From: Candidatus Heimdallarchaeota archaeon | GTDB taxonomy: Archaea > Asgardarchaeota > Heimdallarchaeia > Heimdallarchaeales > Heimdallarchaeaceae | Direction: 5' to 3' | DNA: 40,340 bases | Assembly: GCA_023270155.1 (NCBI GenBank) | Contig: JAGLTB010000021.1 | Span: forward strand, 1-40,340 | Made by a program: the position numbers and the translations under genes | Shown: in pieces, positions 10,450-35,598 of the stretch | Layout of the letters: each line of letters starts with the position of its first letter | How positions within the stretch are numbered: the first letter of the stretch is position 1 | The notes under the pieces: model-generated | Told to the model about the DNA's origin: nothing | The model's input: only the letters and a program-made list of their open reading frames with translations | Database searches by the model: none

Positions 10450-10711
10450 CACTGTTGTTGAACCTGGATGAGTGTGTACTTGTGCTTTCCGTGCTGTTTG
10501 TGAACCCAATGTTTCTCAGTATCTAATTCGCAAAATGCTATTTAAACTCGATAAAATCCCTTTTCTTTGGTAATGAAAAGAAGAGTGTTCTAGATTTTTT
10601 TCCCCCTTATGGTAAGATTGGATAAGTTTTCACTCTTCAGTAGTCTAAAGTAACTTATGTTTAATATAGTACTCTAACAAAATTTAAAACATACTTATTA
10701 TCTTCTATCCC

Positions 10712-17886: not shown

Positions 17887-17944
17887 ATGGAAACGGCTTT
17901 TTGTTCTAATTCAAACATAAGCAAACTAAAGACAACCGATTTAC

Positions 17945-17949
17945 AGGTG
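17945..17949 (+). promoter_or_regulatory. Shine-Dalgarno sequence deciding the Alba start
   Basis: AGGTG, 6 bases before the ATG at 17956. This favours that ATG over the upstream in-frame ATG at 17887, which would add 23 residues unlike any Alba. Confidence 0.6.
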
Positions 17950-17955
17950 TATCAT

Positions 17956-18375
17956 ATGAGCAAGAAAAAGACAGTAAAAAAGAAAGAAGCAGTTGAAAAG
18001 GAAACCGTCGAAGAAGTAGTTGAAGAGGAAGCCGAAGAAGAAGTAGTTGAAAAAGTAAAGGAAAAGAAAAAACCTGCTCCTCAAGCTAGAACTGAAGAAC
18101 AGCGTCAAATAATCTACATCGGTAAGAAGAACACAATTAGCTACGTTCTCGTTGCTGTAACTATATTGAATAAACATGACAGTTGTAATATCCAAGCCAG
18201 AGGAAGACAAATATCTAAAGCTGTTGATGTTGCAGAAATTGCTCGCAGAAAATTCTTACAAGACATGGTTGAAGTAAGCACTGTTAATATTGGGTCTGAA
18301 GATATTGCAAGTGATGTAGAAGGAATGCCACCTAAGACTGTCTCTACAGTTGAGATTATTTTGAAGAAAAAATAG
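17956..18375 (+). CDS. albA: Alba chromatin protein with charged N-terminal extension
   Basis: A 139-residue protein. Residues about 50-139 form a complete Alba domain: IIYIGKKNTISYVLVAVTIL, then ARGRQISKAVDVAEIARRKF, then VSTVEIILKKK. Alba dimers coat and bridge DNA and also bind RNA. The GKKN loop holds the lysine pair that is acetylated in crenarchaeal Alba. In front is a 45-residue tail that alternates Lys-rich and Glu/Val-rich blocks (KKKTVKKKEAV, then VVEEEAEEEVVEKVKEKKK); typical Alba proteins of about 90 residues lack it. The tail could tune DNA affinity or bind partners, as charged histone-like tails do (inference). The gene stands alone between two minus-strand operons. Confidence 0.93.
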   Translation: MSKKKTVKKKEAVEKETVEEVVEEEAEEEVVEKVKEKKKPAPQARTEEQRQIIYIGKKNTISYVLVAVTILNKHDSCNIQARGRQISKAVDVAEIARRKFLQDMVEVSTVNIGSEDIASDVEGMPPKTVSTVEIILKKK

Positions 18376-18434: not shown

Positions 18435-19844
18435 TTAGATGAAATCTCCTGTTTCAATCTTTTGAGGTAAATAGAAATTTGTAATAAATTGTGGATCGCG
18501 AGCATTCAGTGCTTGTATTTCAGCTTTATACCCACTAGAAATTAGAATCTGTAACTGCTCTTTCCATCTTGGTTTTCTTACTACAAATTCCTCTTCTAGC
18601 ATAAGCTTGGATCTATGAATATCTTTAGCAGTCATTTTCAGGAGAGTGCTACTAGGAATGTCAAAACCGCTTTCCGGAGCTAAATCACTTGGAAGAAGTC
18701 CTAACCACTTAATGCTTGGTACTGCCAAATGGCTAGATTCGAAGCTTAGTGCTTTACTTCCTACACTATAAACTCTCATGATTTCGAATCCATAAGGATC
18801 TGCATCCATAACTGCAAAAATGGGGAGCTTTAAATCATCATCTATTTTTTTGAGAAACTGTCTTGTCGCAATATCTGGTTGTCCCTTTGCAGTTATCAAA
18901 ATACTTGGTACATAATCATAAAAGTGATCTTCTGCTAATCTATTAAAGACAGCATCTTTTTCTATTACTAATACAAATTCTGCATCGGAATCTAAATCCT
19001 CAATGTCATCAATATTCGGTGAAATAGCTTTTCCTGCACCAATTGCTCTACAATTAATAGGATCACCTTTTTCCTTAAAATCTATACGACCAACAACTAT
19101 GCCTTTGGAAGATGCACTAATGTTGAGAGAAGTTCTAGTAACTTGCAACATTGCGCTCAAATCCTCCAATAATGAATCAGAGACAGATTGCTTCTCAAAC
19201 GAATTTACATCCATGTAAAACACATCTCTTTTGGTACTATGAATATCTCGAGTAAGAATATCGTGAATAAGTCTCATAATGATAGTCATTTGTTCAACAG
19301 AGCTAACGGAAGCAAGATTACGAAATTGTCTCTCAATCATTTGCCTGCCAATAAGAACGAGTTCTTGTTCCTCATCAAATCCGACATTTGTTCCAGCTCT
19401 AGAAGGTATGTAGAACGAAGCTTCAGATGGATTAAGCATAGCTTGTTGTAGAAAGTCTAAAGAGTATTCCACAAGTAAATTATTGGTTTCTTCGGATGTT
19501 CTAGTATCTACATGAGTTACACCATAAGGCATAAAGTAATCTTTTTTATGATCAAGTTCTTTGCGAACATCTTGTATCTTTTTCAAAGACACAGCATTTT
19601 TTACACTGACTTTCATTGTTTCCTTTTGCAAAGGGTATCTTGATAACTTTCGAGTTGATTCTAATTTATACCACTTCTTTGCACTTCTGAGAAATAGAAC
19701 AAAAGATCCTCGCTTAAGATCAAAGGTTTCTCTAGCCCATGAATACATTTCTCTAACTAAAATTTCTTTATCAAAACTAGTTGGTTTTTCTAATGCAGGT
19801 ATGATTGTTGAGTTTCTAAATATGAAATTAAATTCAGGTGGCAT
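18435..19844 (-). CDS. top6A: DNA topoisomerase VI subunit A (Spo11-like) with long N terminus
   Basis: The cleaving subunit of type IIB topoisomerase, homologous to Spo11. The winged-helix (CAP) domain carries TKRDVFYMDVNSF with catalytic Tyr210; yeast Spo11 has the closely similar RDIFYSNVELF. The Toprim domain shows VLVIEKDAV (Glu295) and AVMDADPYGFEI (Asp347, Asp349), the Mg2+ ligands. At 469 residues it is about 90-110 longer than usual, and the tyrosine, normally near residue 105, is at 210; most of the extra length is an N-terminal region of about 100 residues with a Lys/Arg-rich centre. It begins 2 bases after the top6B stop and has a perfect AGGAGG (19855-19860) inside the end of top6B, so it is well translated within the operon. 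All catalytic residues seem intact. Confidence 0.95.
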   Translation of the reverse strand: MPPEFNFIFRNSTIIPALEKPTSFDKEILVREMYSWARETFDLKRGSFVLFLRSAKKWYKLESTRKLSRYPLQKETMKVSVKNAVSLKKIQDVRKELDHKKDYFMPYGVTHVDTRTSEETNNLLVEYSLDFLQQAMLNPSEASFYIPSRAGTNVGFDEEQELVLIGRQMIERQFRNLASVSSVEQMTIIMRLIHDILTRDIHSTKRDVFYMDVNSFEKQSVSDSLLEDLSAMLQVTRTSLNISASSKGIVVGRIDFKEKGDPINCRAIGAGKAISPNIDDIEDLDSDAEFVLVIEKDAVFNRLAEDHFYDYVPSILITAKGQPDIATRQFLKKIDDDLKLPIFAVMDADPYGFEIMRVYSVGSKALSFESSHLAVPSIKWLGLLPSDLAPESGFDIPSSTLLKMTAKDIHRSKLMLEEEFVVRKPRWKEQLQILISSGYKAEIQALNARDPQFITNFYLPQKIETGDFI

Positions 19845-19846
19845 TT

Positions 19847-22800
19847 TTAATTATCCTCCTTTTTTTTGCTGTTTGAAGATTTCTTAACCGTTGTTGAATT
19901 AGTGTTACTTTTAGTCATATCCAACAAAGTTGTTTGTCTAGCTTTAGCTGATTTATTAGCAGTTGATTTTGTTTTTACTGAAGCTTTTGGTTTTGCTACG
20001 GTTGAACCAGTCTTTTTAGGTGTAGCTTTTTTAGTAGCAGGTTTTGAAGTGCTAGATTTCTTAGTAGCTTTTACTTTCTTGGGTGGAAGTCTGCTTTTTA
20101 GGCTCTTAATTACCATATAACTGAGATCTGTTTTTTCATCAAGTTGTGCTGCTGGATACACTACAAAATCCTTGATGGAAGTGATTCCTAATTGTTTGAT
20201 TTGGTTAATCACCTCAGGTTTTATCTCAAGATTTCCAATGGGTTGTTCAAGTGTTCCAATCAGCTTCTTAACATTTGGATCCTTTAATGAGGTTGATTGT
20301 TTCATCTCTGAATCTGGCATTAGAAGTGCTTGAAGAGTGGTTATACTACTGCCTTTCAGTTGAGCTATATTACCCTCAGTAGTGTGTGGAAGTGTTTTTC
20401 TTATTTCGACTTGATCCTTTTCAGCTTGTTTAAGTGAATCAGGATTCAAAGAAGCATAGAGTGATCGAAGATTCTTTACTGAAATTTTAACTATCTTTGA
20501 GAGTTGCTGAATTGGAGTTGCGAATAAATCCCATAGATTAGTGATATTATTGCTATGCAACAGAAAAACACTCTGAGCATTGGCTTTAATCATATCAGTA
20601 AGATAATAAATTGGTGTTTCCAGAAACTTATGTATTCGAGTTATTTGAAGTTTATTTAACTTTGAAGTTGATGCTATGAGTTCCTCTGGATTATTCAAAT
20701 GAGCAATGGATGTATACCCTGAAATCTTTAACAATTTCTTCATGTTTTTATCGAATAAGCCTATCTTTTCTATGGGATAACTCTTTGTCGTCAAAGCATC
20801 TTTTATCAATGAGAGACTCAAGGAACTCTGTAATTTCTGTACAGCTGTTTGCTCTTGTTCTGTAAGAGACATTTTTACCACTTTTCTTACATCTGGAACA
20901 GCAATAAAATCAATAACTTGTACTATTCCTGCTACCTCTAATTTCGAAACTAAACGCTCTTGAACAACAAACAGATTAATCGGAGCCCGTAGAGCAGTAA
21001 CTAATTCAATAAGTTCAGGCTCGTACTCTGCAATTTCCTTACTTTCTAAGTGTTTAATCAGAGTACCGAAAGATCTAATTTTTTGTTTTCTGAGGAAGGG
21101 TGCTAACTCTGAACCACGTATAAAACTAGACAATCTCTTCTGTTCATCATCCAGCATTCTCTCTACTTTTGTTGAAGATAATTTAGGTAGAAGGTTAACA
21201 CAATTTAATTTATCACTCTCAGGTGTTATTGATTTGCAATAGAACAATAAGTCATAGATGTTGACTAATTTTAATTCTGAAACAAGTTTCTGGATATTCT
21301 TGGATTGTCTAACAGTTGGCAATGATAGTAGTTCTGTTTCTACCATAGTACAGACAGTTTCTGTCAGTTTCCAAAGAGAACTTGTTTTAGCACTAGATTG
21401 TTTATTGAAGGTTATAGCTTCCTCAATTGAATAAATGGTGTTTTTCTCTAATTGTGAAATGTTGCTTCCACTGAGTAATTCAGAAGGTAGATTTGTCAAT
21501 TCCTTTTGGAGATCATTTAAAAGATTAATTGATATATTTCTAAGATTTCTTAGGAATGTTGTTTCTGCAATCTGTTTCTTAATCTTGATACTATCTTCTA
21601 GCAATAACTCTCTGATATTTCTATATGGGAGTTTAGCTACTTGGTTGATACTATTTCTATTGGGAGCTAAGAGAATGGGAGATCTTGATAAATATGGAAC
21701 CAACTCTTTGAATCGCTTACTTATTTTTGAGTGTAGATGCGATCTTGTTTTGTCATAGATTTCAATTTCATGCTTTTCAAGCAATAACAAATATTCAATT
21801 GTTGTATCCGACATTTCAAATTTCTGATCTTTTGTTTCAAGATTGAGTATTTGAGATAGGAGTAAACCTTTACTAAAAATGAAATTAATTATAGTGCTGA
21901 TACTATCACGCTGTTTTTTCTCCATGGTCATTTTATCTATGCTAGGAGCCAAATAGGCTAGATCTAATATTGATAAGGAAAACTCAGAATATGGATCAAA
22001 ATCTTTCAAACTTAGTTGCTTAAAGATCTTTATCTTATCCAAGATATAATTAGGAACTTTCTCAAGTTTCACTTTATCATCAAAAAGGTCTACATAGGTC
22101 TTGATATTCTTCTGTTTCAGAATGTCTATATCTTTTTTGGAGAACAATTTATTCTCTTTAATTATTGGATTATGACCAATGTTGCTTTCAGCTAATGAAT
22201 AACGCAGTTTTCCAACTTCAGTTTGTTTAAGGGAAAGAATTGAAGATAGCTCTTTATTTGTTAATAAGTACAAATCCTCTATTGTATTAATCGATTTGAG
22301 TAATTTCTGCCAGCTTTTTATTGTTACATTGGGGAACAATAATAATTGTATTGGAGTATTCAATCTTCGTTGTATTTTGTTTCCTAATGCTTTGGATATA
22401 GGATAATCTTCTTGTTTCAAAGAATAGATCAAATCGTCCATTGTAGCATAGTGTTTAAGAATTTCCTTCTTTGTATCAGCATCAAAAATCTTGATTTTGC
22501 TTAGTTGAACTTTTTTACTAACATCTGTTTCTATCTTCTTATATGATAATGATGATAATGAAGAAATTATAGTTTCTTTGAAAGATGCAGGAGTCAAATT
22601 AGTCCAAAAAGAGCTAGGTTTAATAATAAGTTCCCCAACGGTGAATATTCCTTTCAAAGCTAGATTTTCAGTATCAGACTTTGAAAGAAAAGATAATGAA
22701 GAAACAGGATTCTGGAATGATTGATTGATTTTATGTCCTAAAATACTTAAAGAATCCTTATTCTGTTCTAAAACAGTGACTAAATCGACAACTGTGTTGA

Positions 22801-25800
22801 CATTGGAGGTACTAATTTTCTTTGAGAATAATTCACCAGGATTGCCATTCTCTAGATATTGTGATATAGGTATGTAATCGCTTTCAACTGTTTCTTTATT
22901 TGCAGAAAATAGTTTCATGAATCCTATGATTTTGTTTTTTTCAGCTTGATTACTTATGGAAATTAGTTCCTGCACCGTTGTTATTCCCTTTTCAAAATAA
23001 TCCCTTTTGATATCTGAAAGTGTATATTCGGATATACTTGGATAATATAAGATTGAAGATACTAGAGCTGATTTTGTTTTATTTCGTATTTGTTGTATTT
23101 TCTTCATTGAAACAAGCCAGTCATAAATAGAATTTTCAGCAAGATCATTTAGAGAATAAATCCCTATCGATTTCAAGAAATTTCTATCTGCTGTGGATAA
23201 GAAAAAGAATTCATCATCTGTCTTTTCAGCTACTGTATCAATCTTCTGAAGTATATTATCGATTTTCAAACTATCAATCAGATTTTGTATATCAGAGACT
23301 TTTGTCTTTGTTGTTGATGCAACTATACTTGGGGACATAAAGAATAAATCTGCAATAATTGTGAAATCTGCATTTTTCCATTTATCTAGGATTTTTTGAT
23401 CAACATCTAGATATTTCAAATTTGCTAGAAGATATGGAGCAAATTTAGCAAAAATCTCTTCATCTTCTTTGAAGGATGGTGAAGTTATAAGAGCTTTATA
23501 TGACGAAAATCCTTTCTGTTGTAGATAAGTTTCCATCTCAGAGAGAGGTTCGACGAACCCAGATTCTCTTATACTTTTAATCAATGAGAGAGAATGCAGA
23601 ATTTCCTCTTGAATATTTTTAGGAAGTTTCTTTATGAAAATAAGATGTTCAATGATTGTAGTTAACCCTTTTTCATAACAGAAATCGATGGATTCTTGGG
23701 TAATTGTAGATAAGTAGCTTATATTATAAGATAGTTTATCTCTCAAAGCATTAATGTCATTTGATTTCAATCGTGTATTCTTCACAATGTATTCAATTGG
23801 AATGAAATACAGGTGCTCGATTGTAGAAACACCTATTTGAAGGAGTGGAGCGGTTAGTTTAGCTGATAGGGTTAGTTTCTCTAATCCTATACCTTGTTTC
23901 TTTATGTTTTTGAGAAGCTTAACTAGATAAGTTGGATCTTCTTTTTGATTGTCGAGTAATTTATGCAAGCTAGAAGACCAGTTCTTGGGAGGTATTTCCA
24001 ATAAGTTAGTGTAAGTTGTGATACCGTTACTTAACAAATCTTTAATCTCAGTATCTTTCAATTTTAGAGTCTTTCCAATTAAAGTAATTGGTGTTAAGAG
24101 ATATGAAGTAAGCTTCACTATCTTGTTACGTTCTTCATTCGATAAGGGTAATAAGTCTAGATTCAATTTCGATGCTTGAACAAGCGAAACGCAACCAAAA
24201 TCAGCTAAGATCTTTCTTGTGTCTTGAGATATTTCAGGAAATAAGCTTAAATCCAATCCAGTTTGTTTAACACTCTGTTCTAGAAGTTTAATATTTTGAG
24301 TTGTTTTGTTCCGAGTAATCTTCTCTTCTGGAATCTTAGTTATTGTTGAGAGTAGAGGTGAAGGAACTAATAGGTATTGGTAAAGATTCTTTATTCCATG
24401 ACCTTTCAAAGTATCAATTTGTTTAGAAGTAAGATACTCTACTGAATACAAGGGAAGGCTTTTCAAAGAGAGAATCAATGGATAAACATCAGCTAGTAAA
24501 CTTTCATTTTGAACAATCTTGCTATCGAGTGAAAGTAGTTCATCTAAATAGACTATCTTTTCATCTTTTAGTTTCTTTAGAACAGATGGGTCAGTAATTA
24601 TTTTTGTATCTTCAAGTTTAATTGCCCAATCTGGTGAACTGAATTGTATAATACTTTTATTCAGAAATTCAGTAGTTTTTGTATACAAACCTTGATATTG
24701 TTCATTTTGAGATAAAAGTAATAAACCTGAGATAATATTTATTCCACCTATTTGAGCGAGAGAAATCAATTGCTTAACACTTAAGGACAAATCGGAAGTT
24801 AGCCAAGAGATTGGTTTGAACATATTTGAAGTTGCGATTCTAATAGTTGATTTCTCTAGATCATCTAGCTCAAAAACTGGATGGGGGATGAAATCGATTA
24901 TTAATAATGCGCTTGATAATCCATATTTCATAAATTGTCTTTCTGCTTTGTTTGGGAACGATAAAGAATGATCTATAAACTGCGAGAATGTTTCAGACAT
25001 TTTCTGACTTAAATCAAACTCTCTCTTGAATATCCTTATTTCTGATGTTGTTTCTTTTGAAACACCGGTTAATTCAGTTAAATTAAGTGAGAGAAGTTCT
25101 ATAACATGTTTTATTCCCTTATTCCACAAAACTGATTTTGTAGGAATACTAATGCCAGGGATTGATAATACATTCAAACATAAGAAGCTGACGAGCTGTT
25201 CGATGAACGCAATGCTTGAGGTTTTTACAATCTTATCTGATTCTGTTAGTTGCATTAAAGCCTCAGGTATGAATCCAAATAAGTCCTCAGCAGCTTTTTT
25301 AGTTGGATCAAATTCTAAGGATTTTAATAATTGAATTATAGGTTCATTTAGCTTTAATTGAGCACCTTTAGAAAGAGTAAAAACTCCTTTCCTAATCTTA
25401 CTTATTTCTTTAGGAACAGAACCCTCGAATGCACTTTTAAGATCTTTATCTGAGCTATTAAATAGATCTATAAGTCTAAGAATCCCTTCTCCTATCAATC
25501 TTAGTTTATCCTCTGATGAAAGCTCTTTAATTCTATAAACAGAGATATGACATGCATTGAGAAAATCTCTCATGTAATCTCCTGAAACACTTATAGAGGG
25601 ATAAGCTTGATAGTTCAAGCTATACAGATCTTGAACATATTCCTTACCAGTTCTAAGTAATGAATTGATCTTTCCTTTAGATAAAACACTGAATTCTTCT
25701 AGTTTTACTCCCTTTCTTTTGACCTCTTTCATTAGGTTTTCAGGTGTTATACGATCTAGAAATCGCTGAACTTTCTTTTCACTCATTTTTAGAAGAAGAG

Positions 25801-28800
25801 CAATTGTAGAGATATCTTCAGTTATAAATGAAAGAATATCCCCTACTCCAGAATAAATCAGCTTACGAACTTGGTTATTATCCAAGCCTATGAATGCAAC
25901 AGAGGCTCGATATAATTGAACTTCTCGGAAGATGTCCAGTTTCACTAAAGCAGGACGCGACTCTCTTATTTCTTCCATGCGAGAGATAAAGTCCTGAATT
26001 GAGTTTATTCCAATATCATTCAGTTTCTCCAAATAATCCTCCTCTATAGAAGGACATACTGAAAGAGGAATTGCAGAACTTATGCGTCTTTCAGCAAGTT
26101 CATCAAAAGAGATAAGATCTAATGCATGAAACTCTTGATAAATTGGGTTTTGAGTGATCTGATGCAACTCATCCTTATTTACTAATGCAAGATCTATTAC
26201 TGAATTTATCTCATGAAATTCTAGTCGTTTCAATTCATCATATGAAAGAAATCCAATGAATCTTATAGATCCTGAAAGAAGCTCTTTTGTTTTCTTGTAT
26301 TCTTCAATCGAAAGAACTTCTGAGATACCCATAATGCTTGCAGAGTAGAAGAGTGATTCAATATCAGAAATACCTATGTCTTTAAGCTCCTCTATTTTCT
26401 TTTCTGATAAGAACTCTGAAGGTCTTACTATATGAGCTTGAGATAAGCGGAAAGCAACTATATCGGAATAGGTTAATGCTTCTTTTATTTCTCTTATTTC
26501 TTTTTGAGAGTTGCCTGTTATTTCGGAAATTTGTTTTACAGGAATTGAAAAGAAATCGATTAATGTATTGACTGAGGATTTGCTTAATTTAAGAGCGATT
26601 GTTCGAGGTAATCCCATGGAAGCAATTGGTATGGCAAGTTCCATGATTAATCTATCTAACGAATCATTTTCTAATAAGCGTGAGTAAAAGGGTTGAAGAG
26701 CTGAATGTTCTTCAAAATCAATTTCGAAAACATCTCCAATTATTACGTCTTTATATTCTTCTCGTCTTGCTTTTCTGATTCGAGTAAAGAATGGAGTGAT
26801 TCTTAGAGGAAGCTCCAAAATTGATCTAATTAAGGTTAAATTATAATTCTCTGTAAGATATTGTTGATCCTTCCCCATTAGGTCTTTTATCACCTTATTA
26901 TCTGTAATTACATCAAATAACGTTTTACTCTCTATATCTTGAACTACTTTCTTGAAATAAGATGAGTTATATACAGTAGCAGGGAGATTAGCAAAGTAAT
27001 GAAATGCCTGCATTATGATAATTTTAGAAGAATATGTGGATACAACACGGAACAGAACTGGATCTGTAAGATCTGCATCAGGAATGAAAAGCAGTTGATA
27101 AACATAATCAATGTTATTTTGCTCAAGAATCTCCATTGAATACTCTGAGATCTCTGTGAATATTTTTAGTGGTAGTGTTAAGTACTTTTGAACTGCTGAG
27201 ATCTTTTTCCATATCTCTGGATTAGCATAATAGTATTGCTCTTCAGTTGAATAATATAGCTCTTGTATTGTTTGAAAGCGTTCAAATTGGAATATTGAAT
27301 CTCTGCTTAACACTCTTTGTTCATGCCTGTCGAACAATTGTGTTTCAAAGGCAAAAATACCTTTATTTTCATAGAGAGCTTGAATGCTTGATGTTGTCAA
27401 AGATATTATAATTTCCTTAATCTCATCTGGTTGAGCTTTAGTTAATTTACTAATTTTTTGAGCAGGAGCCATAATGAATTCTGCTATAGTTTTAATTCCG
27501 TTTTCTCTAAGAATTTCAGTATTGGTAAAGGATAGGGATGGTAAGAAATAAACTGGGAGTGAAAAGTAACCGAATATGTCTGATAAATCTAAAGCATTCT
27601 TAATAGTTTCAAATCTTTCATCAGCAATTCCTGTCTTTTCCATTAGTGCTTCAGGTGAAGATAACATGAAGCCTAGCAGAGTGGAAATGCTAGCTTTTCT
27701 TAGTATTTCGATAATCTCTGGATCTAACATGTCTGAGATATGATAGAGTGGAAGGTTCAGAATAGCTTTGAAAGATTCAATAACATCCCAAGGAAGAGAT
27801 TCTATTGTCCATTTATCCTTTGAAGTTGAGAAATAAAGATCCTCAATTGTGACTATATTATGTATATCTAATTCTCTTACAATCCTGGATTCTAAAATTC
27901 CAAGTTCTGATAGATCTATTCCAGTATCACTTATTCTTACATTTCTTTGCAGTGATTGAGCTTCTTCAATTTGAATTTCTAGATAATCAACTAAATCTGA
28001 GGGTTGACTTACTAATAAATCGATAATCTTAGTTATCCCATGATTACGTAGGGTGTTCAGTTGTAGTGTTGATAAAGTAGAAACTTGAATATCATCTATA
28101 ACTTGTTCTTCATCTGTCTCTTCATCTTTAACAGTTCTTTTAATCTCCTGTTCCCAAGTCACTAATGTTAATGGAGAACGTAGAAGTTTCCTAAATTTTT
28201 CTATCACATTCCAATTAACAAAAGCTGATGAGAATGTGAGAGGGTTTGCAAGATAGAAGATTTTGTCTATTGTATCATATCCAGATAGAATTAGAGAAAC
28301 AATTTCGGCAGAGGAGAATCTTTCAGACTCTTCAAACTCAAATGAAACTAAGGACTCATATTTGGTTCCTTTTTTCTCAAAAAAGAAGGTTCCTTGTTTT
28401 AAAATTGAAAAATCATCAAACAGTTGCGTTATATTTTCTTCTTCTTTTCCAAGAATGGATGCCAATTCTGTGACAGTGTAATCAAAAATTTGATGGATTG
28501 CTATTATCCCATAGTTTCTCAATTTATCATAATCATCCAAAGTGAGACCACTTATTCGGGATATCGGAAGAGCTAAGCTTCGCAGAAACTCATCATATTC
28601 GCTGAGAAGAACTATTTGTTGATTAAATTCGCTCTCTTCTTCGATATCTCTTGTTTTAATTTTATTGTATAAATTCAAAGCTAACTTTCTTTCTTTTGTT
28701 GTATTAAGTTCTGATTCAATTATCTCAGGTAGTAAATCTAAAAACTGTCTAATTGTTACAATATTTCGTAATTTTAATTTTAGTAAAGTATCTTTTAGTT

Positions 28801-31800
28801 CAGGATGTTCTTTGAATTTACTAGAATATATCTGAGTAAGCTCAATTAGTTCAAGATTAGAAAGTTTGTTCAGACTCTCAAAATTCTTCCAAAAGTCTTG
28901 AATTAATGATGGTTTTTCAGTAGGGTAGACACTGAAAAGATCCTGTAAATTATGTTTAAATTGATCAAAATAACCAATGAATTTTGGAAAGATTTTCTTC
29001 AATAATACAGAATCTTTTCCAAAAGTTGCTCTGTTCTTATTGATTTCCTCCACTGAAATAGCCTTCTTGAACTCTTCTACTTTTATTTCTGATAGATTTA
29101 GAATTTCTGCTAATTCACTGTTAGTCCATAGTGTGAAACGACCAATGCAGTTTATACCCACATCATACAGCAAATTAGAATTCTTACGAAGAGAAGGGAA
29201 AGCAAAGGTCAGAGGAGTTCTGAGGAATGTTGAGATTTCTGTATATTTCTTCTTGTTTTCTGATGATAATGAATATACTTCTGGAGGATTATAGAACAGC
29301 TCTTCTAAAGTAACAATTCCTTCTGTTTTAAAGAACTCAGGTTCATCAATCCAAGAGGGTATAGGTGTTCCTAGTTTCTTTTTAATCCACTCAATATCTT
29401 TCTTACGTAAGCCAACTTTACGTAATTGGATGGATGGAAAAGCCAAGAAAGAAGAAGTTGTAAAAATCTGAAGAACTTTCAATTCTCTTTCAATATCTAG
29501 AGATATGATTTTTATGTGAGAGAGATCTTTATCCTGTTTGGTTTCCCTAATATGAGATAAGAGTTTGTATTTAGATTCTTTAAGTAAGAAATTACGAAGC
29601 GATGCAAATTTCTTATTATTAATAGAAGCCACTGGTAAGTAAATTAAATCCAATAATGTTGAAATTTTGTGTGTAGTTAGAATCTTCTTGATTTCTGATT
29701 CTTCTTGTTTTAAACCTTCATCTGTTGAAAATTGTAACTTTGATAAACTAATAGATTTCGAAGAAGAAGAAAGGATATCCATAAAAGATGCATAGAGTTT
29801 TCTTTCAAGCTCTTTGATTACTATTAATTCATCAAGATTTGCATTCACAAAATCCTCTATTGTTTTTATCTTTCTCCTGTGGAAAGCGTTTTTAGTATAT
29901 GCATCTGTCCAGTCAGGAGTCAGTTTAGTGATATTTGTTTTAGCAAAATCTGGGAATTTATCACACAATTGAGAATAAACATTTTTCAAATAATTTACTA
30001 AAATTGCAGTAATTTCTGCTTGATAATTTATAGTAGTTGGCAATTTAGTTTGAAAGAGGAACTCTTCGATAGTTGTCTCTTGAGCGATTAAACCTTTAGA
30101 ATTATCCTTTAAGTAATTAAATGATGGGAACAAAGTCTGTATTTTTAGGTCTGCTGTTTTAGTCAAGGATGCTATTAGTTGCTTACCTTCAGAGGAAATT
30201 GCAGCACTACTTTTCTTGTTCATATTGAGTAAAAACTGATGTAGTAAATCTTCCCTCATATTTTCAAAAAGTTTCTCTGGTAAACCAGCAACTGATTGAA
30301 GTTTTCTATAATCTGTAGCAAAGTAATGATAGCTATTTTGAATCCATCGTCTATACAATGAATCCTTTAAGGAGTCAAATGATTTTCCATTATCTGAAAC
30401 GAATCTTTTTTCTATGGTTCTGCTTACAAAGATTTTAGGATCGAATCTTGGACTCATACCTTCCCTATCTAGTTCTGATATTGTTCTCAATTTTATATTG
30501 TAAATATCCTCTTCAGAGAGCGATAGAAGGGTAACAAGTTCTTCTGAAGGAGTAATAAGAAAATCTGCAACAGATTCAATGGCTTTTGATTTCAAGGCAT
30601 ATTGTATTCTCGAAGGACACCATACATTAGCTCCAAAAAGTCGTTTTCCTAAAGGCATGAAAAGTTTGACTTTTTTCGTTGCTCCATGAGCAAGCGCTGC
30701 TGCAATTCTATCTGATTCCAATCTGAAATCAGTATAACTCAGATCTTCGTCTTCCAATATTTTTGTTAGATTCTCAACAATTATAGGAGCTGACCTAACA
30801 AAACGAGATAATCTTGCATGTTCTCTTCGTTTTCTTTTAGCTCTACTAAGAAAGGTCTTTAATCTTCTTCCTAGTTGCATTAGAGCTAATCTAATTTCTT
30901 CCTCAATCTCTGGAACAATAGAAATATATTCCTTACTGGTTTCAGGAAAGGGAATTTTTGTACTAACCAATGAAACAGCAATCGCTAATGGATCAGATTG
31001 TCTAGTAAGACCATAGTCATTCCACCTTATTGAAGAGACAACATGTGTAATAACATCGTTCCCAGCTCCAAAAACAAGAGGAATACGATTAGCATAACGA
31101 TATATTATCTTATTATCCGTTACTGTTGCACCTTTTACTTGTGATGCTTCTCCAACTCCTCCTCCATACCCTAATGCCGCTTCAATAACAAATGGATGTC
31201 CAGAGTAAGCTTTTGGAGCTCGAGTCACAGCTTCTACGAATTTTGGTTGTAATTCTTTTTCTAAACCCCTCCTTAATCTGTTTGCGCCTAGAGGAGAAAG
31301 AGCTGTTCCTCTTGGTGCATCAAACTGAAAAATCCTATCTCTTTTTCTCTTTACATCTTTAGCTTCTTGATATGCTTTCACAAATCCTTCATGAACGATT
31401 CTTCGAATCTCATGTGATGTGATATCTTTTGGGGATTTATTTGGATCTATCTCTAGGAGCTGGAAGAAATCTTCTGCTATTTCTTCAGTCACTCCCATAA
31501 ATTGTGTTGCTAGAAACTCCTTCAATTTCTTGCTTCTAGTTACAGCTAATTCAGCTTTGAATTGTGTAATATCACACCCCCAGGGATGAATTTTCACAGG
31601 TTGAGGAGGTGGAGGCATATCATCTACAACACTATCATAATCCAAATCCTCTGTTTCTCCCTCTTTGTCACCTGGTAATCTTACTTTGAAGGTTGAGTAA
31701 GGAGTAATAATTGCTAACTGTCTGAAATACTCCTTCACACTATTTTTAGCTAATCTCCAAGCTCCTGTAAAAGTGATTGAAATTTCCAATCCTGGTTCTA

Positions 31801-32359
31801 CCAAATAATTAGGGTCTCCTGGAAGATATTCATGCTGTTCCATTATTATTGGTTCATTCTTTTCCAGGTTAATCATCAGATGCATTTCATGAGTGATATC
31901 GTCCATGAAATACCTACTACGAATCTTTGCAGGGAGATCTACAGAAGACATTGAATAAAGCAAACACATTTTTGCTCCTAAACCGAATCTTCCACGTGTC
32001 TGAATCACACCATATTTAGTTCCTGTTAAAACTCTCCCAAATAAGTCTGCAATCTCATTACCTGGAACTCCAACGCCATTATCTCTACATGAAAGTTGAA
32101 GAAAATCTAAATGCTTTTCCAGCTTCTTGTACTGTGTTACATCTAATAGCTCATTAATTTCTCTACTGGATAATTTTCTTAAATCAACACTAACAACTGG
32201 GCTAATACCTCTTTTTTCAGCTGAATCCAAGCCATTTTCAACTAGTTCCCTTATGCTTGTAAAGACTGCTCTCATCGAATTTCCAAAGCCTGCAATCGCT
32301 CTGTTCTCATTAAAGAAAGCAGCTGCAGACATCTTTTTTGTAATAGAATTTTCAGACAC
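19847..32359 (-). CDS. top6B: Giant DNA topoisomerase VI subunit B with about 40 C-terminal repeats
   Basis: A 4170-residue protein; ordinary subunit B is about 530. The N-terminal core is normal: GHKL N-box RELVENGLDSAE (Glu38, Asn42), G1 DNGVGVP (93-99), G2 QTRGRFGLGAK (120-130), an H2TH-like region (about 269-326), and a transducer with NRIPLVFGAG and STKIPF, whose Lys468 is the likely ATP-sensing lysine. After about residue 545 the protein continues without a stop through about 40 copies of an 85-residue repeat (from about 585 to 4091), then a Lys/Ser/Thr/Ala-rich tail (4092-4170). The core binds ATP, dimerises and captures DNA together with subunit A. Start is GTG at 32359 (next ATG is codon 10) with GGGG upstream and a TATA at 32396-32405. 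The frame shows no break, so the fusion is real unless misassembled. Confidence 0.95.
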   Translation of the reverse strand: MSENSITKKMSAAAFFNENRAIAGFGNSMRAVFTSIRELVENGLDSAEKRGISPVVSVDLRKLSSREINELLDVTQYKKLEKHLDFLQLSCRDNGVGVPGNEIADLFGRVLTGTKYGVIQTRGRFGLGAKMCLLYSMSSVDLPAKIRSRYFMDDITHEMHLMINLEKNEPIIMEQHEYLPGDPNYLVEPGLEISITFTGAWRLAKNSVKEYFRQLAIITPYSTFKVRLPGDKEGETEDLDYDSVVDDMPPPPQPVKIHPWGCDITQFKAELAVTRSKKLKEFLATQFMGVTEEIAEDFFQLLEIDPNKSPKDITSHEIRRIVHEGFVKAYQEAKDVKRKRDRIFQFDAPRGTALSPLGANRLRRGLEKELQPKFVEAVTRAPKAYSGHPFVIEAALGYGGGVGEASQVKGATVTDNKIIYRYANRIPLVFGAGNDVITHVVSSIRWNDYGLTRQSDPLAIAVSLVSTKIPFPETSKEYISIVPEIEEEIRLALMQLGRRLKTFLSRAKRKRREHARLSRFVRSAPIIVENLTKILEDEDLSYTDFRLESDRIAAALAHGATKKVKLFMPLGKRLFGANVWCPSRIQYALKSKAIESVADFLITPSEELVTLLSLSEEDIYNIKLRTISELDREGMSPRFDPKIFVSRTIEKRFVSDNGKSFDSLKDSLYRRWIQNSYHYFATDYRKLQSVAGLPEKLFENMREDLLHQFLLNMNKKSSAAISSEGKQLIASLTKTADLKIQTLFPSFNYLKDNSKGLIAQETTIEEFLFQTKLPTTINYQAEITAILVNYLKNVYSQLCDKFPDFAKTNITKLTPDWTDAYTKNAFHRRKIKTIEDFVNANLDELIVIKELERKLYASFMDILSSSSKSISLSKLQFSTDEGLKQEESEIKKILTTHKISTLLDLIYLPVASINNKKFASLRNFLLKESKYKLLSHIRETKQDKDLSHIKIISLDIERELKVLQIFTTSSFLAFPSIQLRKVGLRKKDIEWIKKKLGTPIPSWIDEPEFFKTEGIVTLEELFYNPPEVYSLSSENKKKYTEISTFLRTPLTFAFPSLRKNSNLLYDVGINCIGRFTLWTNSELAEILNLSEIKVEEFKKAISVEEINKNRATFGKDSVLLKKIFPKFIGYFDQFKHNLQDLFSVYPTEKPSLIQDFWKNFESLNKLSNLELIELTQIYSSKFKEHPELKDTLLKLKLRNIVTIRQFLDLLPEIIESELNTTKERKLALNLYNKIKTRDIEEESEFNQQIVLLSEYDEFLRSLALPISRISGLTLDDYDKLRNYGIIAIHQIFDYTVTELASILGKEEENITQLFDDFSILKQGTFFFEKKGTKYESLVSFEFEESERFSSAEIVSLILSGYDTIDKIFYLANPLTFSSAFVNWNVIEKFRKLLRSPLTLVTWEQEIKRTVKDEETDEEQVIDDIQVSTLSTLQLNTLRNHGITKIIDLLVSQPSDLVDYLEIQIEEAQSLQRNVRISDTGIDLSELGILESRIVRELDIHNIVTIEDLYFSTSKDKWTIESLPWDVIESFKAILNLPLYHISDMLDPEIIEILRKASISTLLGFMLSSPEALMEKTGIADERFETIKNALDLSDIFGYFSLPVYFLPSLSFTNTEILRENGIKTIAEFIMAPAQKISKLTKAQPDEIKEIIISLTTSSIQALYENKGIFAFETQLFDRHEQRVLSRDSIFQFERFQTIQELYYSTEEQYYYANPEIWKKISAVQKYLTLPLKIFTEISEYSMEILEQNNIDYVYQLLFIPDADLTDPVLFRVVSTYSSKIIIMQAFHYFANLPATVYNSSYFKKVVQDIESKTLFDVITDNKVIKDLMGKDQQYLTENYNLTLIRSILELPLRITPFFTRIRKARREEYKDVIIGDVFEIDFEEHSALQPFYSRLLENDSLDRLIMELAIPIASMGLPRTIALKLSKSSVNTLIDFFSIPVKQISEITGNSQKEIREIKEALTYSDIVAFRLSQAHIVRPSEFLSEKKIEELKDIGISDIESLFYSASIMGISEVLSIEEYKKTKELLSGSIRFIGFLSYDELKRLEFHEINSVIDLALVNKDELHQITQNPIYQEFHALDLISFDELAERRISSAIPLSVCPSIEEDYLEKLNDIGINSIQDFISRMEEIRESRPALVKLDIFREVQLYRASVAFIGLDNNQVRKLIYSGVGDILSFITEDISTIALLLKMSEKKVQRFLDRITPENLMKEVKRKGVKLEEFSVLSKGKINSLLRTGKEYVQDLYSLNYQAYPSISVSGDYMRDFLNACHISVYRIKELSSEDKLRLIGEGILRLIDLFNSSDKDLKSAFEGSVPKEISKIRKGVFTLSKGAQLKLNEPIIQLLKSLEFDPTKKAAEDLFGFIPEALMQLTESDKIVKTSSIAFIEQLVSFLCLNVLSIPGISIPTKSVLWNKGIKHVIELLSLNLTELTGVSKETTSEIRIFKREFDLSQKMSETFSQFIDHSLSFPNKAERQFMKYGLSSALLIIDFIPHPVFELDDLEKSTIRIATSNMFKPISWLTSDLSLSVKQLISLAQIGGINIISGLLLLSQNEQYQGLYTKTTEFLNKSIIQFSSPDWAIKLEDTKIITDPSVLKKLKDEKIVYLDELLSLDSKIVQNESLLADVYPLILSLKSLPLYSVEYLTSKQIDTLKGHGIKNLYQYLLVPSPLLSTITKIPEEKITRNKTTQNIKLLEQSVKQTGLDLSLFPEISQDTRKILADFGCVSLVQASKLNLDLLPLSNEERNKIVKLTSYLLTPITLIGKTLKLKDTEIKDLLSNGITTYTNLLEIPPKNWSSSLHKLLDNQKEDPTYLVKLLKNIKKQGIGLEKLTLSAKLTAPLLQIGVSTIEHLYFIPIEYIVKNTRLKSNDINALRDKLSYNISYLSTITQESIDFCYEKGLTTIIEHLIFIKKLPKNIQEEILHSLSLIKSIRESGFVEPLSEMETYLQQKGFSSYKALITSPSFKEDEEIFAKFAPYLLANLKYLDVDQKILDKWKNADFTIIADLFFMSPSIVASTTKTKVSDIQNLIDSLKIDNILQKIDTVAEKTDDEFFFLSTADRNFLKSIGIYSLNDLAENSIYDWLVSMKKIQQIRNKTKSALVSSILYYPSISEYTLSDIKRDYFEKGITTVQELISISNQAEKNKIIGFMKLFSANKETVESDYIPISQYLENGNPGELFSKKISTSNVNTVVDLVTVLEQNKDSLSILGHKINQSFQNPVSSLSFLSKSDTENLALKGIFTVGELIIKPSSFWTNLTPASFKETIISSLSSLSYKKIETDVSKKVQLSKIKIFDADTKKEILKHYATMDDLIYSLKQEDYPISKALGNKIQRRLNTPIQLLLFPNVTIKSWQKLLKSINTIEDLYLLTNKELSSILSLKQTEVGKLRYSLAESNIGHNPIIKENKLFSKKDIDILKQKNIKTYVDLFDDKVKLEKVPNYILDKIKIFKQLSLKDFDPYSEFSLSILDLAYLAPSIDKMTMEKKQRDSISTIINFIFSKGLLLSQILNLETKDQKFEMSDTTIEYLLLLEKHEIEIYDKTRSHLHSKISKRFKELVPYLSRSPILLAPNRNSINQVAKLPYRNIRELLLEDSIKIKKQIAETTFLRNLRNISINLLNDLQKELTNLPSELLSGSNISQLEKNTIYSIEEAITFNKQSSAKTSSLWKLTETVCTMVETELLSLPTVRQSKNIQKLVSELKLVNIYDLLFYCKSITPESDKLNCVNLLPKLSSTKVERMLDDEQKRLSSFIRGSELAPFLRKQKIRSFGTLIKHLESKEIAEYEPELIELVTALRAPINLFVVQERLVSKLEVAGIVQVIDFIAVPDVRKVVKMSLTEQEQTAVQKLQSSLSLSLIKDALTTKSYPIEKIGLFDKNMKKLLKISGYTSIAHLNNPEELIASTSKLNKLQITRIHKFLETPIYYLTDMIKANAQSVFLLHSNNITNLWDLFATPIQQLSKIVKISVKNLRSLYASLNPDSLKQAEKDQVEIRKTLPHTTEGNIAQLKGSSITTLQALLMPDSEMKQSTSLKDPNVKKLIGTLEQPIGNLEIKPEVINQIKQLGITSIKDFVVYPAAQLDEKTDLSYMVIKSLKSRLPPKKVKATKKSSTSKPATKKATPKKTGSTVAKPKASVKTKSTANKSAKARQTTLLDMTKSNTNSTTVKKSSNSKKKEDN
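19850..20086 (-). other. Lysine-rich tail of Top6B with a PIP-box-like motif
   Basis: The last 79 residues are low-complexity and rich in Lys, Ser, Thr, Ala and Pro, like histone H1 or other DNA-binding tails. Inside is ARQTTLLDMTKS (Gln4142 at 19934-19936). It matches the start of PCNA-binding boxes (Q-x-x-L, compare QATLFDFL in archaeal RFC) but lacks the aromatic pair, so PCNA binding is only possible, not shown. Confidence 0.4.
20087..30607 (-). repeat. About 40 degenerate HhH-like protein repeats within top6B
   Basis: By eye, residues 585-4091 of the B subunit break into about 40 units of about 85 residues. A unit reads roughly: L-x3-G-I-x-T-I-x-D-L, then 6-8 residues, L, about 10 residues, I-x2-L-x3-L, a Pro-Leu/Ile (as in LNLPLYHIS, LETPIYYL, LRTPLTFAF, LEQPIGNL), and on to the next L. 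Clear examples are LRENGIKTIAEFI, LKGHGIKNLYQYLLVP, LLSNGITTYTNLLEIP, IKQLGITSIKDFVVYP and LRNHGITKIIDLLV. The GI-[TS]-[IL] hairpin between two helices resembles the helix-hairpin-helix of RadA ([13 protein letters not shown] in this window). The copies differ greatly in sequence, so the array is old and not a recent DNA-level expansion. Confidence 0.8.
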
Positions 32360-32526: not shown

Positions 32527-35500
32527 TTAAGATTTCTTGAATTTAGGTCCAGTTCTATAAAGAACCACTGAAGCAATTACGAAACCAATTGTGACTAAGA
32601 AAAGAGCAGCAAAAGCACCTATGGTACGGTTTGCATCTGCATTATTGATCTCATTTAAGAAAGTCTCCAAAAGGTAATCGTAAAATGCAGAACTTGCTTT
32701 GTGAACATCTTCACCCCAGAAGTTAGTTCCCATGTTACCTGCTAATCCAGGATTAGTTGTATGCCATGTTCTGTATCTGTCACCTTCAGATAACTCATCA
32801 GGATCTATAATCCATCGTTCATTAACAACGTCATAATAACCATATATAGTTTCATTAAGAAAAGCGTAAGCTTCTGAAAATCCTTGCACTCCTGTACAGT
32901 ACTGTACTCTATCTTCTCTTTCAATAACACTTCCAGTAATAGGCTCAGCTCTCATATTTTGCATGTGGAAAGGATCCCTAGAAAATCCTGGGAGAGAGTG
33001 TGTAAGCTTGAATTCACTAGGTTTCAAATCAAGATCATACATTCTATTCCATCTTCCTACGTGTATGAAACTGGAGTTCAAATAATTGGAACCTATCATC
33101 CAATAAATGTCTGTCATAGCTAATTGTCTAAGTGGTACTGTAGCCTGAGCAGTATAAACTAAAACATCTTGATCATAGAAGATAGCAGTGTCTGTTAGGG
33201 AGGAATACGCAAAAGGTCTGAAGAAGAATTCACTCCATTGTTGTCGTAAACCTTTTTCTGCATAAGGATAAACTGCAAAATTATCATAAGTTTCGTTAAA
33301 GTGCAAATCTGATTCTACAAGTGTCCAATCATTAAAACGGATTTTTGAATCTTGTCTCCAGCATTCAACGAATGCATGCAACTCATCTCTTTCGATCTCT
33401 TCAAAAGTTCCACCAATTCCCAGCTCTAGATGAATAAGACCTTCAGAACCATCTGCAAGGTAAATATCATCTAAATTAGCAAAAACTCCATATGCTGAAC
33501 CTAAATGAGCAGTTCCATTGAATCTGTAAGATTCTGTTAGAGTTGCAGGTTGAGATGTACTTACTATTGTGAAACCATAATCACCTTGTGTAAGATAAGC
33601 TCTTGCTGTATCTTCATCAATATAGAGATTATTGAAATAAGTCTCTGCGGGATCATAAGTGAATTGACCTAATTCTGTTAAGATACCATCAAAATCAACT
33701 TCAAAAGTAAGTAAGCCTTCAACTTGATCTAAAACATATACTGTGCTTCCTTTTGCTTTGACGTCAATTACATTCTTGAGATTTGGAAAATCAATTGAAT
33801 TATAATGTAAAATATCTCCTAAATTACCTGTAGCTTGCTCAATTTCGATAAGATTGAGACCATCTGTACCAAGTGCTACATAAGCATGTCTTTTGTTATC
33901 ATTAACATCAATTGCAATAGCAGTACCGTTTAATGCTTTGGTCTCTGCTATTGTACTTATTTCTCTTTCTGCACCGATTGTATCGCTTATTCTAGCATAG
34001 GTTATACCATATGCTCCATTAGCAATATACAAGGCATCAAATGGAAGACCTGCTCCCATTGAGGAATGATCTATATCTCGCATATCGGAGTTTCCTAAAT
34101 TATTCCATTGATCTATTTCATAAATTGATGCTGGATTTGTTGCATTCAACACTTCTAATCCTCTTGTTCCTTCAACAGCATATACAAAGCCATCAACAAC
34201 TGCAAAGCCTAAAATTTGTCCATCAGAACCTAAGGCTTGTTCTGTAGTTGTTACATAATCGCCATACTGACCCATAGCCATGAATAGTGGGTTAGTCATA
34301 TTAACGATTTTAATGTCTGTGCCACCTTCAAGAATATAAGCTAAATCATCTTCTACAATTACATCTGAGGATCGAGAGTTTTCATAGTAAGGGATATTAG
34401 CTATTGCCATTATTTTTCCAACATCATGAACATCATATGTACCTAATTGTTCAGCGTAGAAAAGATCTTTAGTCCAATCAATATCATTGCTTGCAAGGGT
34501 TTGATTTACTATAAATGGGAATTTTCTATAACCCAGTAATGGATCGTCAATACCTAGTATCCATTCAAGCGCTGTTCTTTTACAAACGTAAGAAATTTTG
34601 TTTTCGTATAACCAGTCAAGAGAAGGTTTACCTAATAGATATTGTAAATATGCAGCAAAAGATTGTGCTAATTCTTTTTCATATACTGTATCTATATCAT
34701 AGATATCTGCGAGAAGTTGTTCTACATCAACAATCAAATCACCGGCATCATAATCCAATCCTTTCACTAAATCAAGGAAGAATTTAGCAGAACCTGATTC
34801 TCCTGTCAATACTGAATAATCATGACCATTATATTGTGCGTTATACAGGATTTTATTGCTTGTAGCTTGATCAAAATCAAGATCTAGGTACGCAGGTCGA
34901 ACACTTAACCAATTATGAGGTAAATATATACCTAAATCTATTAATCCTTCTTCCTCTGCATAAGTTCGATTAAGAGCTGCATAGGCTAGTTCACTATCTG
35001 AATATACAACAGGATCACCTTTGATATCAAGAAGCTCTTGCTGAAGAAGGAATGATGCAACATAAGCTTGAAAACCATATTCTGTTCCATTCCCAAACTC
35101 ACTAATATAATAAGGCCACATGTAGTTGAAATTCAAAACTGTTTCTTCACCTGTCAAGTCTGAAGCTGTTGTGTTGAGAAGGTATTGCTTTCTATATGCA
35201 TATGTTACATAATCTCCTTCTATATCATACTCCAGAATTGTTTTATTTGTAATTATATCAAAGACAAGATCACCTTGAACGAAATAATAAGCAATTGCGT
35301 TACCATAATCAAGAAAACCTGTGCGGTCACTCACATTAAAGAACTCAAAGAATGCTTGATCATAAAATAATGAATTATTTTCCCAACCACCGGTATACAT
35401 CCACTCTGAATTCTCTCCTGACCCATCAAAGGGATTGAAATCATCTTCAGTTAATTTTCCATAAACATCCAACCTATCGTTTATAACCTCAATATTATTA

Positions 35501-35598
35501 ACAGAGCTTTGTGGGAGAAGGAGTCCCATTGTGATTGCTGAGCCCACGAAAATAGTTATAATTGTTATACCTAAAAATGTCCTAAGTCCTGCTTGCAT
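32527..35598 (-). CDS. Membrane-anchored extracellular protein with LVIVD-type beta-propeller
   Basis: A 1023-residue protein with an N-terminal hydrophobic signal/anchor (about 5-29), a C-terminal transmembrane helix (about 992-1014) and a short basic tail (RTGPKFKKS), so the body should lie outside the cell with the tail inside. The centre (about 395-765) has six or so beta repeats of the LVIVD kind: DLAYILEGGTDIKIVNMTNP, GFVYAVEGTRGLEVLNATNP, DALYIANGAYGITYARISD, and further copies ending in YLADGSEGLIHLEL. These make a beta-propeller used for binding. The flanks (40-390 and 770-990) are large, acidic and Tyr/Trp-rich, with many possible N-glycosylation sites (N-x-S/T). I do not recognise a catalytic domain. 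GAGGA (35605-35609) 6 bases before the ATG supports the start. Confidence 0.8.
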   Translation of the reverse strand: MQAGLRTFLGITIITIFVGSAITMGLLLPQSSVNNIEVINDRLDVYGKLTEDDFNPFDGSGENSEWMYTGGWENNSLFYDQAFFEFFNVSDRTGFLDYGNAIAYYFVQGDLVFDIITNKTILEYDIEGDYVTYAYRKQYLLNTTASDLTGEETVLNFNYMWPYYISEFGNGTEYGFQAYVASFLLQQELLDIKGDPVVYSDSELAYAALNRTYAEEEGLIDLGIYLPHNWLSVRPAYLDLDFDQATSNKILYNAQYNGHDYSVLTGESGSAKFFLDLVKGLDYDAGDLIVDVEQLLADIYDIDTVYEKELAQSFAAYLQYLLGKPSLDWLYENKISYVCKRTALEWILGIDDPLLGYRKFPFIVNQTLASNDIDWTKDLFYAEQLGTYDVHDVGKIMAIANIPYYENSRSSDVIVEDDLAYILEGGTDIKIVNMTNPLFMAMGQYGDYVTTTEQALGSDGQILGFAVVDGFVYAVEGTRGLEVLNATNPASIYEIDQWNNLGNSDMRDIDHSSMGAGLPFDALYIANGAYGITYARISDTIGAEREISTIAETKALNGTAIAIDVNDNKRHAYVALGTDGLNLIEIEQATGNLGDILHYNSIDFPNLKNVIDVKAKGSTVYVLDQVEGLLTFEVDFDGILTELGQFTYDPAETYFNNLYIDEDTARAYLTQGDYGFTIVSTSQPATLTESYRFNGTAHLGSAYGVFANLDDIYLADGSEGLIHLELGIGGTFEEIERDELHAFVECWRQDSKIRFNDWTLVESDLHFNETYDNFAVYPYAEKGLRQQWSEFFFRPFAYSSLTDTAIFYDQDVLVYTAQATVPLRQLAMTDIYWMIGSNYLNSSFIHVGRWNRMYDLDLKPSEFKLTHSLPGFSRDPFHMQNMRAEPITGSVIEREDRVQYCTGVQGFSEAYAFLNETIYGYYDVVNERWIIDPDELSEGDRYRTWHTTNPGLAGNMGTNFWGEDVHKASSAFYDYLLETFLNEINNADANRTIGAFAALFLVTIGFVIASVVLYRTGPKFKKS

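What the first reader, a model, noticed from the sequence alone, without database searches (positions are those of the whole stretch)
19847..32359. Topoisomerase VI B subunit expanded to 4170 residues by about 40 HhH-like repeats
Seen: one uninterrupted frame with a complete GHKL/H2TH/transducer core (about 545 residues), then about 3500 residues of degenerate 85-residue repeats and a lysine-rich tail. Known: archaeal and plant Top6B proteins are about 530-700 residues; I know of none like this. Inference: the array is a long flexible rod or beads-on-string DNA- or protein-binding arm that would let a topoisomerase hold distant DNA segments, or act as a chromosome scaffold or meiosis-like axis protein. 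The partner Top6A is intact and co-transcribed, so the enzyme is probably active.
Basis: partly seen in the sequence, partly recalled or inferred. Interest (0 to 1): 0.95.

Follow-up and report, generated by a model that had tools for sequence, protein, structure and literature searches.

The report
Giant topoisomerase VI with helical arm
Heimdall-type Asgard archaea carry a normal-looking DNA-untangling enzyme (topoisomerase VI) whose ATPase subunit has a fixed-length chain of roughly 58 small helical domains, making it about eight times longer than usual; the gene is real, conserved and under selection, and I found no description of it in the text of the papers searched.

Summary
The 4170-residue frame (window 19847-32359, minus strand) is real. 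Residues 1-540 are a complete topoisomerase VI B core with its ATPase motifs; the catalytic A subunit lies 2 bp downstream. Residues about 548-4095 are nearly all helical: two AlphaFold slices (mean pLDDT about 78) show five-helix units of the RAD51-N-terminal / RNA-polymerase-alphaCTD (HhH-like) type. They repeat every 60.6 residues, alternating 67/54 (121-residue pairs), so about 58 units rather than forty 85-residue repeats. A lysine-rich tail follows.

It is not a misassembly: twelve same-genus genomes carry the full array, as do a single-contig genome of the same family (4305 aa) and other families. The array is under purifying selection (dN/dS mostly 0.04-0.18). Its length is fixed within families (last unit ends at residue 4090-4105 in 14 genomes). 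All extended Top6Bs form one clade, with arrays growing distally from about 550 to about 3,520 residues. Almost every carrier also has DNA gyrase or a second, normal topoisomerase VI.

Best reading: an active topoisomerase VI with a built-in arm of fixed length and a basic tip, specialised alongside another type II enzyme. Whether the arm binds DNA or protein is open; its net charge is about zero, unlike topoisomerase V.

The parts
19847..32359 (-). giant top6B gene, 4170 aa, 476 kDa, GTG start, TAA stop
   Evidence: orthologues
30740..32359 (-). Top6B core, residues 1-540: GHKL ATPase (N box RELVENGLD 37-45, G1 DNGVGVPG 93-100, G2 TRGRFGLGAK 121-130), H2TH, transducer (K468 of STKIP)
20075..30718 (-). 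array of HhH-fold five-helix units, residues about 548-4095; mean unit 60.6 aa, 121-aa pairs, about 58 units (extrapolated)
23480..26692 (-). residues 1890-2960, AlphaFold slice showing 17 units with alternating 67/54 spacing
28076..28162 (-). residues 1400-1428, predicted beta-hairpin insertion in the otherwise helical array
19850..20074 (-). lysine-rich basic tail, residues 4096-4170
19916..19936 (-). QTTLLDM motif (residues 4142-4148), kept in all 12 complete tails of the family in an otherwise variable tail; loosely PIP-box-like but without the aromatic pair, role unknown
18435..19844 (-). top6A, 469 aa, catalytic Y210, Toprim E295/D347/D349; 2 bp after the giant top6B

Best explanation
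A catalytically competent topoisomerase VI (A2B2) in which each B subunit carries a covalent arm of about 58 tandem HhH-fold domains of fixed length, ending in a basic tail. SHOWN from sequence: intact core and partner; single-origin array; constrained length within families; purifying selection; co-occurrence with another type II topoisomerase. PREDICTED: the fold of the arm. INFERRED: the arm works as a fixed-length tether or scaffold that positions the enzyme on the chromosome or next to partner proteins, with the basic tip gripping DNA. This would make it a dedicated decatenase/unknotting machine while gyrase, or in two lineages a second ordinary topoisomerase VI, handles general supercoiling.
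For: Core motifs align with solved Top6B and the Top6A catalytic residues are kept. The array starts directly after the transducer helix, is regular and nearly all helical, and has no Ig-like domain. Array length is held: first unit at residue 570-580 and last unit ending at 4090-4105 in 14 genomes of one family, 2283-2289 in f5 and 1098-1103 in f6, despite 30-65% identity in much of the array. dN/dS is mostly 0.04-0.18 in the array. All extended Top6Bs form one clade, support 100/99, with collinear arrays of increasing length. Gyrase A occurs in f1-f5 and f7 carriers; f6 and f26 lack it but have a second normal Top6B. In f5 and f7 gyrA sits directly upstream of the giant top6B (coordinates). 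Published precedent: Top6B C-terminal extensions accompany gyrase in archaea (PMC9348778).
Against: No biochemistry and no model of the whole protein; global shape is uncertain (pTM 0.55-0.58). The gyrase association rests on few independent origins: Loki-type relatives with gyrase enlarged Top6B by other means (inserts), and f16 has an enlarged Top6B with no gyrase match. G035 and G039 lack a detected second enzyme (both incomplete genomes). What the arm binds is unknown.
Confidence: 0.5

Rival explanations
1. Topoisomerase V-like clamp: the HhH units wrap DNA directly and act as a built-in processivity clamp that holds the DNA segments.
For: Topoisomerase V is the only precedent I know of for a topoisomerase with tandem HhH domains, and its domains encircle DNA (PMC9489208). 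It is the top-ranked Foldseek row for slice 1890-2960, though not significant (E 0.21). The units resemble DNA-binding domains (RAD51 NTD, alphaCTD, XPF).
Against: Net charge of the arm is about zero to negative (-14 here, -49 in an f5 member, -114 in the f2 member), whereas topoisomerase V forms a positively charged track. No glycine position is kept in more than about half of the recognised units.
Confidence: 0.25
2. Protein-interaction platform: the HhH units act as alphaCTD- or NusA-AR-like adaptor domains that recruit many partners (RNA polymerase, RadA, PCNA, SMC), making a hub rather than a ruler.
For: The unit profile matches RNA polymerase alphaCTD (1doq E 2e-5) and, weakly, the NusA C-terminal repeats, which as a matter of general knowledge work partly through protein contacts. 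A short motif is conserved in the tail.
Against: Strict conservation of array length is not needed for a hub. No partner has been identified.
Confidence: 0.2
3. Near-neutral expansion: the arm grew by duplication and is merely tolerated, with the enzyme working as ordinary topoisomerase VI.
For: Array length differs between families and sequence identity falls quickly.
Against: Low dN/dS along the whole array, fixed length within families over deep divergence, no frame breaks in the intact loci.
Confidence: 0.04
4. Assembly or gene-model artefact (fusion of two genes or a missed stop).
For: The window comes from a fragmented metagenome-assembled genome (270 contigs).
Against: Independent assemblies give the same frame, including a 3.33-Mb single-contig genome (4305 aa) and a 4.94-Mb single-contig genome (2312 aa).
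Confidence: 0.01

Closest known systems
Archaeal DNA topoisomerase VI (Top6A/Top6B; Saccharolobus shibatae 2zbk, Methanosarcina mazei 2q2e)
   Same: Full core homology of both subunits, catalytic and ATPase residues kept, adjacent genes.
   Different: Top6B is 4170 aa; the solved ones are 470-621 aa and most Asgard Top6B outside this clade are about 500-670 aa. The extension is an HhH-like array, not the Ig-like C-terminal domain of M. mazei.
Topoisomerase V of Methanopyrus kandleri (type IC)
   Same: An N-terminal topoisomerase module followed by tandem HhH-type domains (PMC9489208).
   Different: Unrelated catalytic domain; 12 (HhH)2 domains rather than about 58 units; a positively charged track, whereas this arm is neutral to acidic. 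No significant fold match of the whole array.
RAD51/RadA N-terminal domain and RNA polymerase alpha C-terminal domain (HhH-like fold)
   Same: Each unit has this fold: RAD51C NTD TM-score 0.71 (target-normalised), rmsd 2.0 A; profile hits 1doq, RAD51B, RAD51D; Pfam RAD51D_N.
   Different: There it is a single domain; here dozens are in tandem with a 121-aa pair period.
Lineage-specific Top6B C-terminal extensions of gyrase-bearing archaea (PMC9348778)
   Same: Extension directly after the transducer in organisms that also have gyrase.
   Different: Described as globular domains (an Ig-like fold of about 100 aa in Euryarchaeota group II); nothing of this size or fold is described in the text read.
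Giant proteins (>3000 aa) of Asgard archaea (PMC8813620, Extended Data Fig. 7)
   Same: That figure lists giant proteins of selected Asgard genomes with CDD domains. The authors' 3.32-Mb circular Heimdallarchaeum endolithica genome is probably our G022, which has a 4305-aa frame here.
   Different: The text discusses aloposon giants; the word topoisomerase does not occur in it. The figure could not be read, so an unremarked listing is possible.

Membership tests
Topoisomerase VI B subunit | Top6B profile over the full core above the curated cut-off | tested here: met
   NF003218 440.2 bits (cut-off 274), TIGR01052 386.7 bits (cut-off 380.7)
Topoisomerase VI B subunit | GHKL ATP-binding boxes, H2TH and transducer with the conserved lysine | tested here: met
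   alignment to 2zbk_B residues 9-486; PF09239 transducer
Topoisomerase VI holoenzyme | intact Top6A with catalytic Tyr and Toprim acids, encoded alongside | tested here: met
   Y210, E295, D347, D349 aligned with 2zbk_A; gene 2 bp downstream
Topoisomerase VI holoenzyme | ATP-dependent decatenation and relaxation activity | not testable with these tools
   needs purified protein
Topoisomerase V (type IC) | type IC catalytic domain | tested here: not met
   the catalytic core is Top6B
Topoisomerase V (type IC) | tandem HhH domains after the catalytic part | tested here: met
   (works-like resemblance only)
Topoisomerase V (type IC) | positively charged HhH track | tested here: not met
   net charge of the arm -14; only the last 80 aa strongly positive (+20); local grooves not examined
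M. mazei-type Top6B Ig-like C-terminal domain | beta-sandwich domain after the transducer | tested here: not met
   AlphaFold slice 500-1660 is helical after the transducer helix
Tandem HhH-like (RAD51-NTD / alphaCTD) domain array | repeating unit of this fold, found by sequence profile and by structure | tested here: met
SPO11 / meiotic TOPOVIBL complex | closer kinship of the A subunit to Spo11 than to archaeal Top6A | tested here: not met
   48 bits to yeast Spo11 versus 193 bits to S. shibatae Top6A; no tree with eukaryotic sequences could be made

The most novel reading that the evidence does not exclude
Heimdallarchaea use topoisomerase VI as a chromosome-architectural machine: a roughly 1.06-MDa A2B2 enzyme whose two arms of set length (inferred to span on the order of 100 nm) fix the distance between the strand-passing gate and a second anchor on DNA or a partner, with a different fixed arm length in each family, and with ordinary supercoil control handed to gyrase or a second topoisomerase VI.
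Probability: 0.3. Interest if true: 0.93.

Novelty: new variant of a known kind. Interest (0 to 1): 0.8.

Why it matters
Heimdallarchaeia are among the archaea closest to eukaryotes, and almost nothing is known about how Asgard archaea organise or separate their chromosomes (stated in PMC12188315). An active, conserved topoisomerase VI with an arm of fixed, family-specific length would be a new way of coupling strand passage to chromosome geometry. Arm length is a ready natural variable, from about 9 to about 58 units. The work also sharpens the published idea that topoisomerase VI is remodelled when another type II topoisomerase is present.

Tried and rejected
85-residue repeat: rejected; AlphaFold unit spacing gives 60.6/121, and profile self-offsets show peaks near 60 and 120 and none at 85. 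Misassembly: rejected. Relaxed or decaying array: rejected by dN/dS. Array borrowed from another protein of the same genome: an array slice finds only the giant itself in the window's genome; a unit profile finds mainly the giant plus a few small HhH proteins in relatives. Ig-like C-terminal domain as in M. mazei: not present. Whole-array fold matches in PDB: none significant. Top hit of the unit-profile search (8vd6, 'CAP repeat') set aside: five copies of one 20-residue match. SPO11 affinity: only a weak lead. Self-BLAST of the array printed no off-diagonal pairs, so iterative profiles were used. Long Top6B outside Asgard archaea was not searched; the genome-contig scan reached only close relatives.

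Full report
OBSERVATION. The minus-strand frame 19847-32359 runs from GTG to TAA without a stop and encodes 4170 residues, 476 kDa. Residues 7-542 match the NCBIfam Top6B models above their cut-offs. They align end to end with Saccharolobus shibatae Top6B 2zbk_B, with the N, G1 and G2 boxes, the H2TH region and the transducer STKIP lysine in register. Top6A (18435-19844, 469 aa) begins 2 bp after the giant's stop codon on the same strand. Its Y210 aligns with Y106 of the S. shibatae chain, and its Toprim acids E295, D347 and D349 are kept. Co-transcription is inferred from the spacing.

IT IS NOT AN ARTEFACT. Orthologues of the core occur in 52 of the 57 genomes searched, the window's own included. 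Regions taken from those genomes show that eleven same-genus genomes, the window included, have complete frames of about 4170-4238 aa, and a twelfth runs to its contig end at 4135 aa with the whole array present. A 3.33-Mb single-contig genome of the same family gives 4305 aa, other families of the order give 3473-3573 aa, f5 gives 2312-2324 aa (including a 4.94-Mb single contig), f26 gives 2286-2293 aa and f6 gives 1118-1123 aa. Record titles identify same-genus members as Heimdallarchaeota MAGs, including AB_125, and f26 as Candidatus Borrarchaeum. Pairwise dN/dS in the array is mostly 0.04-0.18 (one distal block 0.24 where dS is near saturation), against 0.02-0.05 in the core and 0.3-0.5 in the lysine-rich tail. 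The whole length is therefore translated and constrained.

WHAT THE ARRAY IS. Pfam sees RAD51D_N (82.9 bits) and HHH_5 in it. Iterated profiles find about 30 units by sequence in this protein, 20-37 in other members of the order with a complete frame and 7 in f6. AlphaFold with 15 orthologues gives mean pLDDT 77.6 for residues 1890-2960 and 78.2 for 500-1660. The first slice shows 17 five-helix units with spacings 67, 54, 67, 54, 67, 54 and so on: mean 60.6, pair mean 121.07. Over about 3,520 residues this is about 58 units in about 29 pairs. This figure is an extrapolation, because the distal third was not modelled. Single units match the RAD51C N-terminal domain (TM-score 0.71 normalised to the target, rmsd 2.0 A). 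A profile of 23 units matches RNA polymerase alphaCTD (1doq, E 2e-5), RAD51D (E 0.0015) and RAD51B (E 0.002) N-terminal domains. The unit consensus is SILSLPISFLPGLSPEILKKLKKNGITTIIDFLLTPSEELAKILGLSEKEIEEIKKSL. No solved structure matches the array as a whole; the top-ranked row by E-value for one slice, not significant, is topoisomerase V (E 0.21).

HOW IT EVOLVED. In a maximum-likelihood tree of cores, every extended Top6B falls in one clade (support 100/99). The second, normal-size Top6Bs of f6 and f26 fall outside it; a 547-aa Top6B without an array (f27) is the nearest unextended sister. Profile alignments are collinear: f6 1-1092 with f5 1-1236; f5 3-2289 with f1 2-2451; f3 along nearly the whole of f1. 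So the array most simply arose once and grew, mostly at its far end. Within a family its length is then held: in 14 genomes the first unit begins at residue 570-580 and the last ends at 4090-4105; in six full-length f5 proteins it ends at 2283-2289, and in three f6 proteins at 1098-1103. Identity in the distal array is only about 30-45% between most same-genus members. Repeat arrays usually change copy number readily, so this suggests that length or shape matters (inference).

CONTEXT. Gyrase A is found in essentially every genome with the longer forms (f1-f5, f7) and in none of the f6 or f26 carriers examined. f6 has a second, ~505-aa Top6B in eight of nine genomes, and both f26 genomes examined have a 564-aa one. 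Exceptions are G035 and G039, both incomplete. In f5 and f7, gyrA lies immediately upstream of the giant top6B (coordinates). In Borrarchaeum, both topoisomerase VI gene pairs lie in one locus. A link of this kind has been reported for smaller extensions: gyrase-bearing archaea have lineage-specific Top6B C-terminal domains, explained as division of labour (PMC9348778). The present case is an extreme and structurally different example. The association rests on few independent events and is not strict across Asgard archaea (f16 has an enlarged Top6B without a gyrase match).

MECHANISM. Shown: a complete enzyme core, a conserved arm, and co-occurrence with another type II enzyme. Predicted: the fold. 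Inferred: the arm as tether or scaffold. A topoisomerase V-like DNA wrap is the obvious analogy (PMC9489208), but that enzyme offers a positively charged track. This arm is neutral to acidic in most members (-14 here, down to -114; mildly positive in a few), and only the last 80 residues are strongly basic. No glycine position is kept in more than about half of the recognised units. I therefore favour a structural or protein-binding arm with a basic tip, at about 0.5; DNA-wrapping at 0.25; protein hub at 0.2. The tail also carries a short conserved motif, QTTLLDM, of unknown role.

NOVELTY. Searches of the open-access library for Top6B or topoisomerase VI with Asgard, Heimdallarchaeota, giant or helix-hairpin-helix found no text describing it. 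One figure (Extended Data Fig. 7b of PMC8813620) may list it among giant proteins without comment. I file it as a new variant of topoisomerase VI.

Noticed in passing
L123-L126 (G116, G082, G083, G081): Loki-type and related Asgard Top6B are 1000-1350 aa because of N-terminal and internal inserts around the core rather than a C-terminal array.
   Followed up: partly
L051 / L120: Candidatus Borrarchaeum carries two topoisomerase VI gene pairs in one locus: a normal one (564 aa Top6B + 389 aa Top6A) and an extended one (2293 aa + 473 aa).
   Followed up: partly
window 13073-16017, minus strand: A Ras-family GTPase (196 aa) overlaps by 4 nt a 785-aa HEAT-repeat protein with a weak condensin Cnd1 match; they look like a co-expressed pair.
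   Followed up: no
window 38577-39719: A 380-aa tubulin/FtsZ-superfamily GTPase just at Pfam's threshold (33.1 vs 33) and far from the FtsZ model (18.5 vs 295 bits): a divergent family.
   Followed up: partly
window 8569-10509, minus strand: A 646-aa TnpB/Cas12f-like protein with weak matches; no companion element searched.
   Followed up: no
window 17887-18375: An Alba chromatin protein with a charged N-terminal extension lies convergent to Top6A.
   Followed up: no
window 32527-35598, minus strand: A 1023-aa protein upstream of the giant Top6B on the same strand has no Pfam or NCBIfam match.
   Followed up: no
window 6303-7409: A RadA-like protein with an HhH N-terminal domain resembling the array unit is encoded in the same window; a possible source of the unit (read by eye, inference).
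   Followed up: no
window 18435-19844: This Top6A has an N-terminal extension of about 100 aa relative to solved Top6A, and matches yeast Spo11 slightly better (48 bits) than a standard Asgard Top6A (34 bits).
   Followed up: partly
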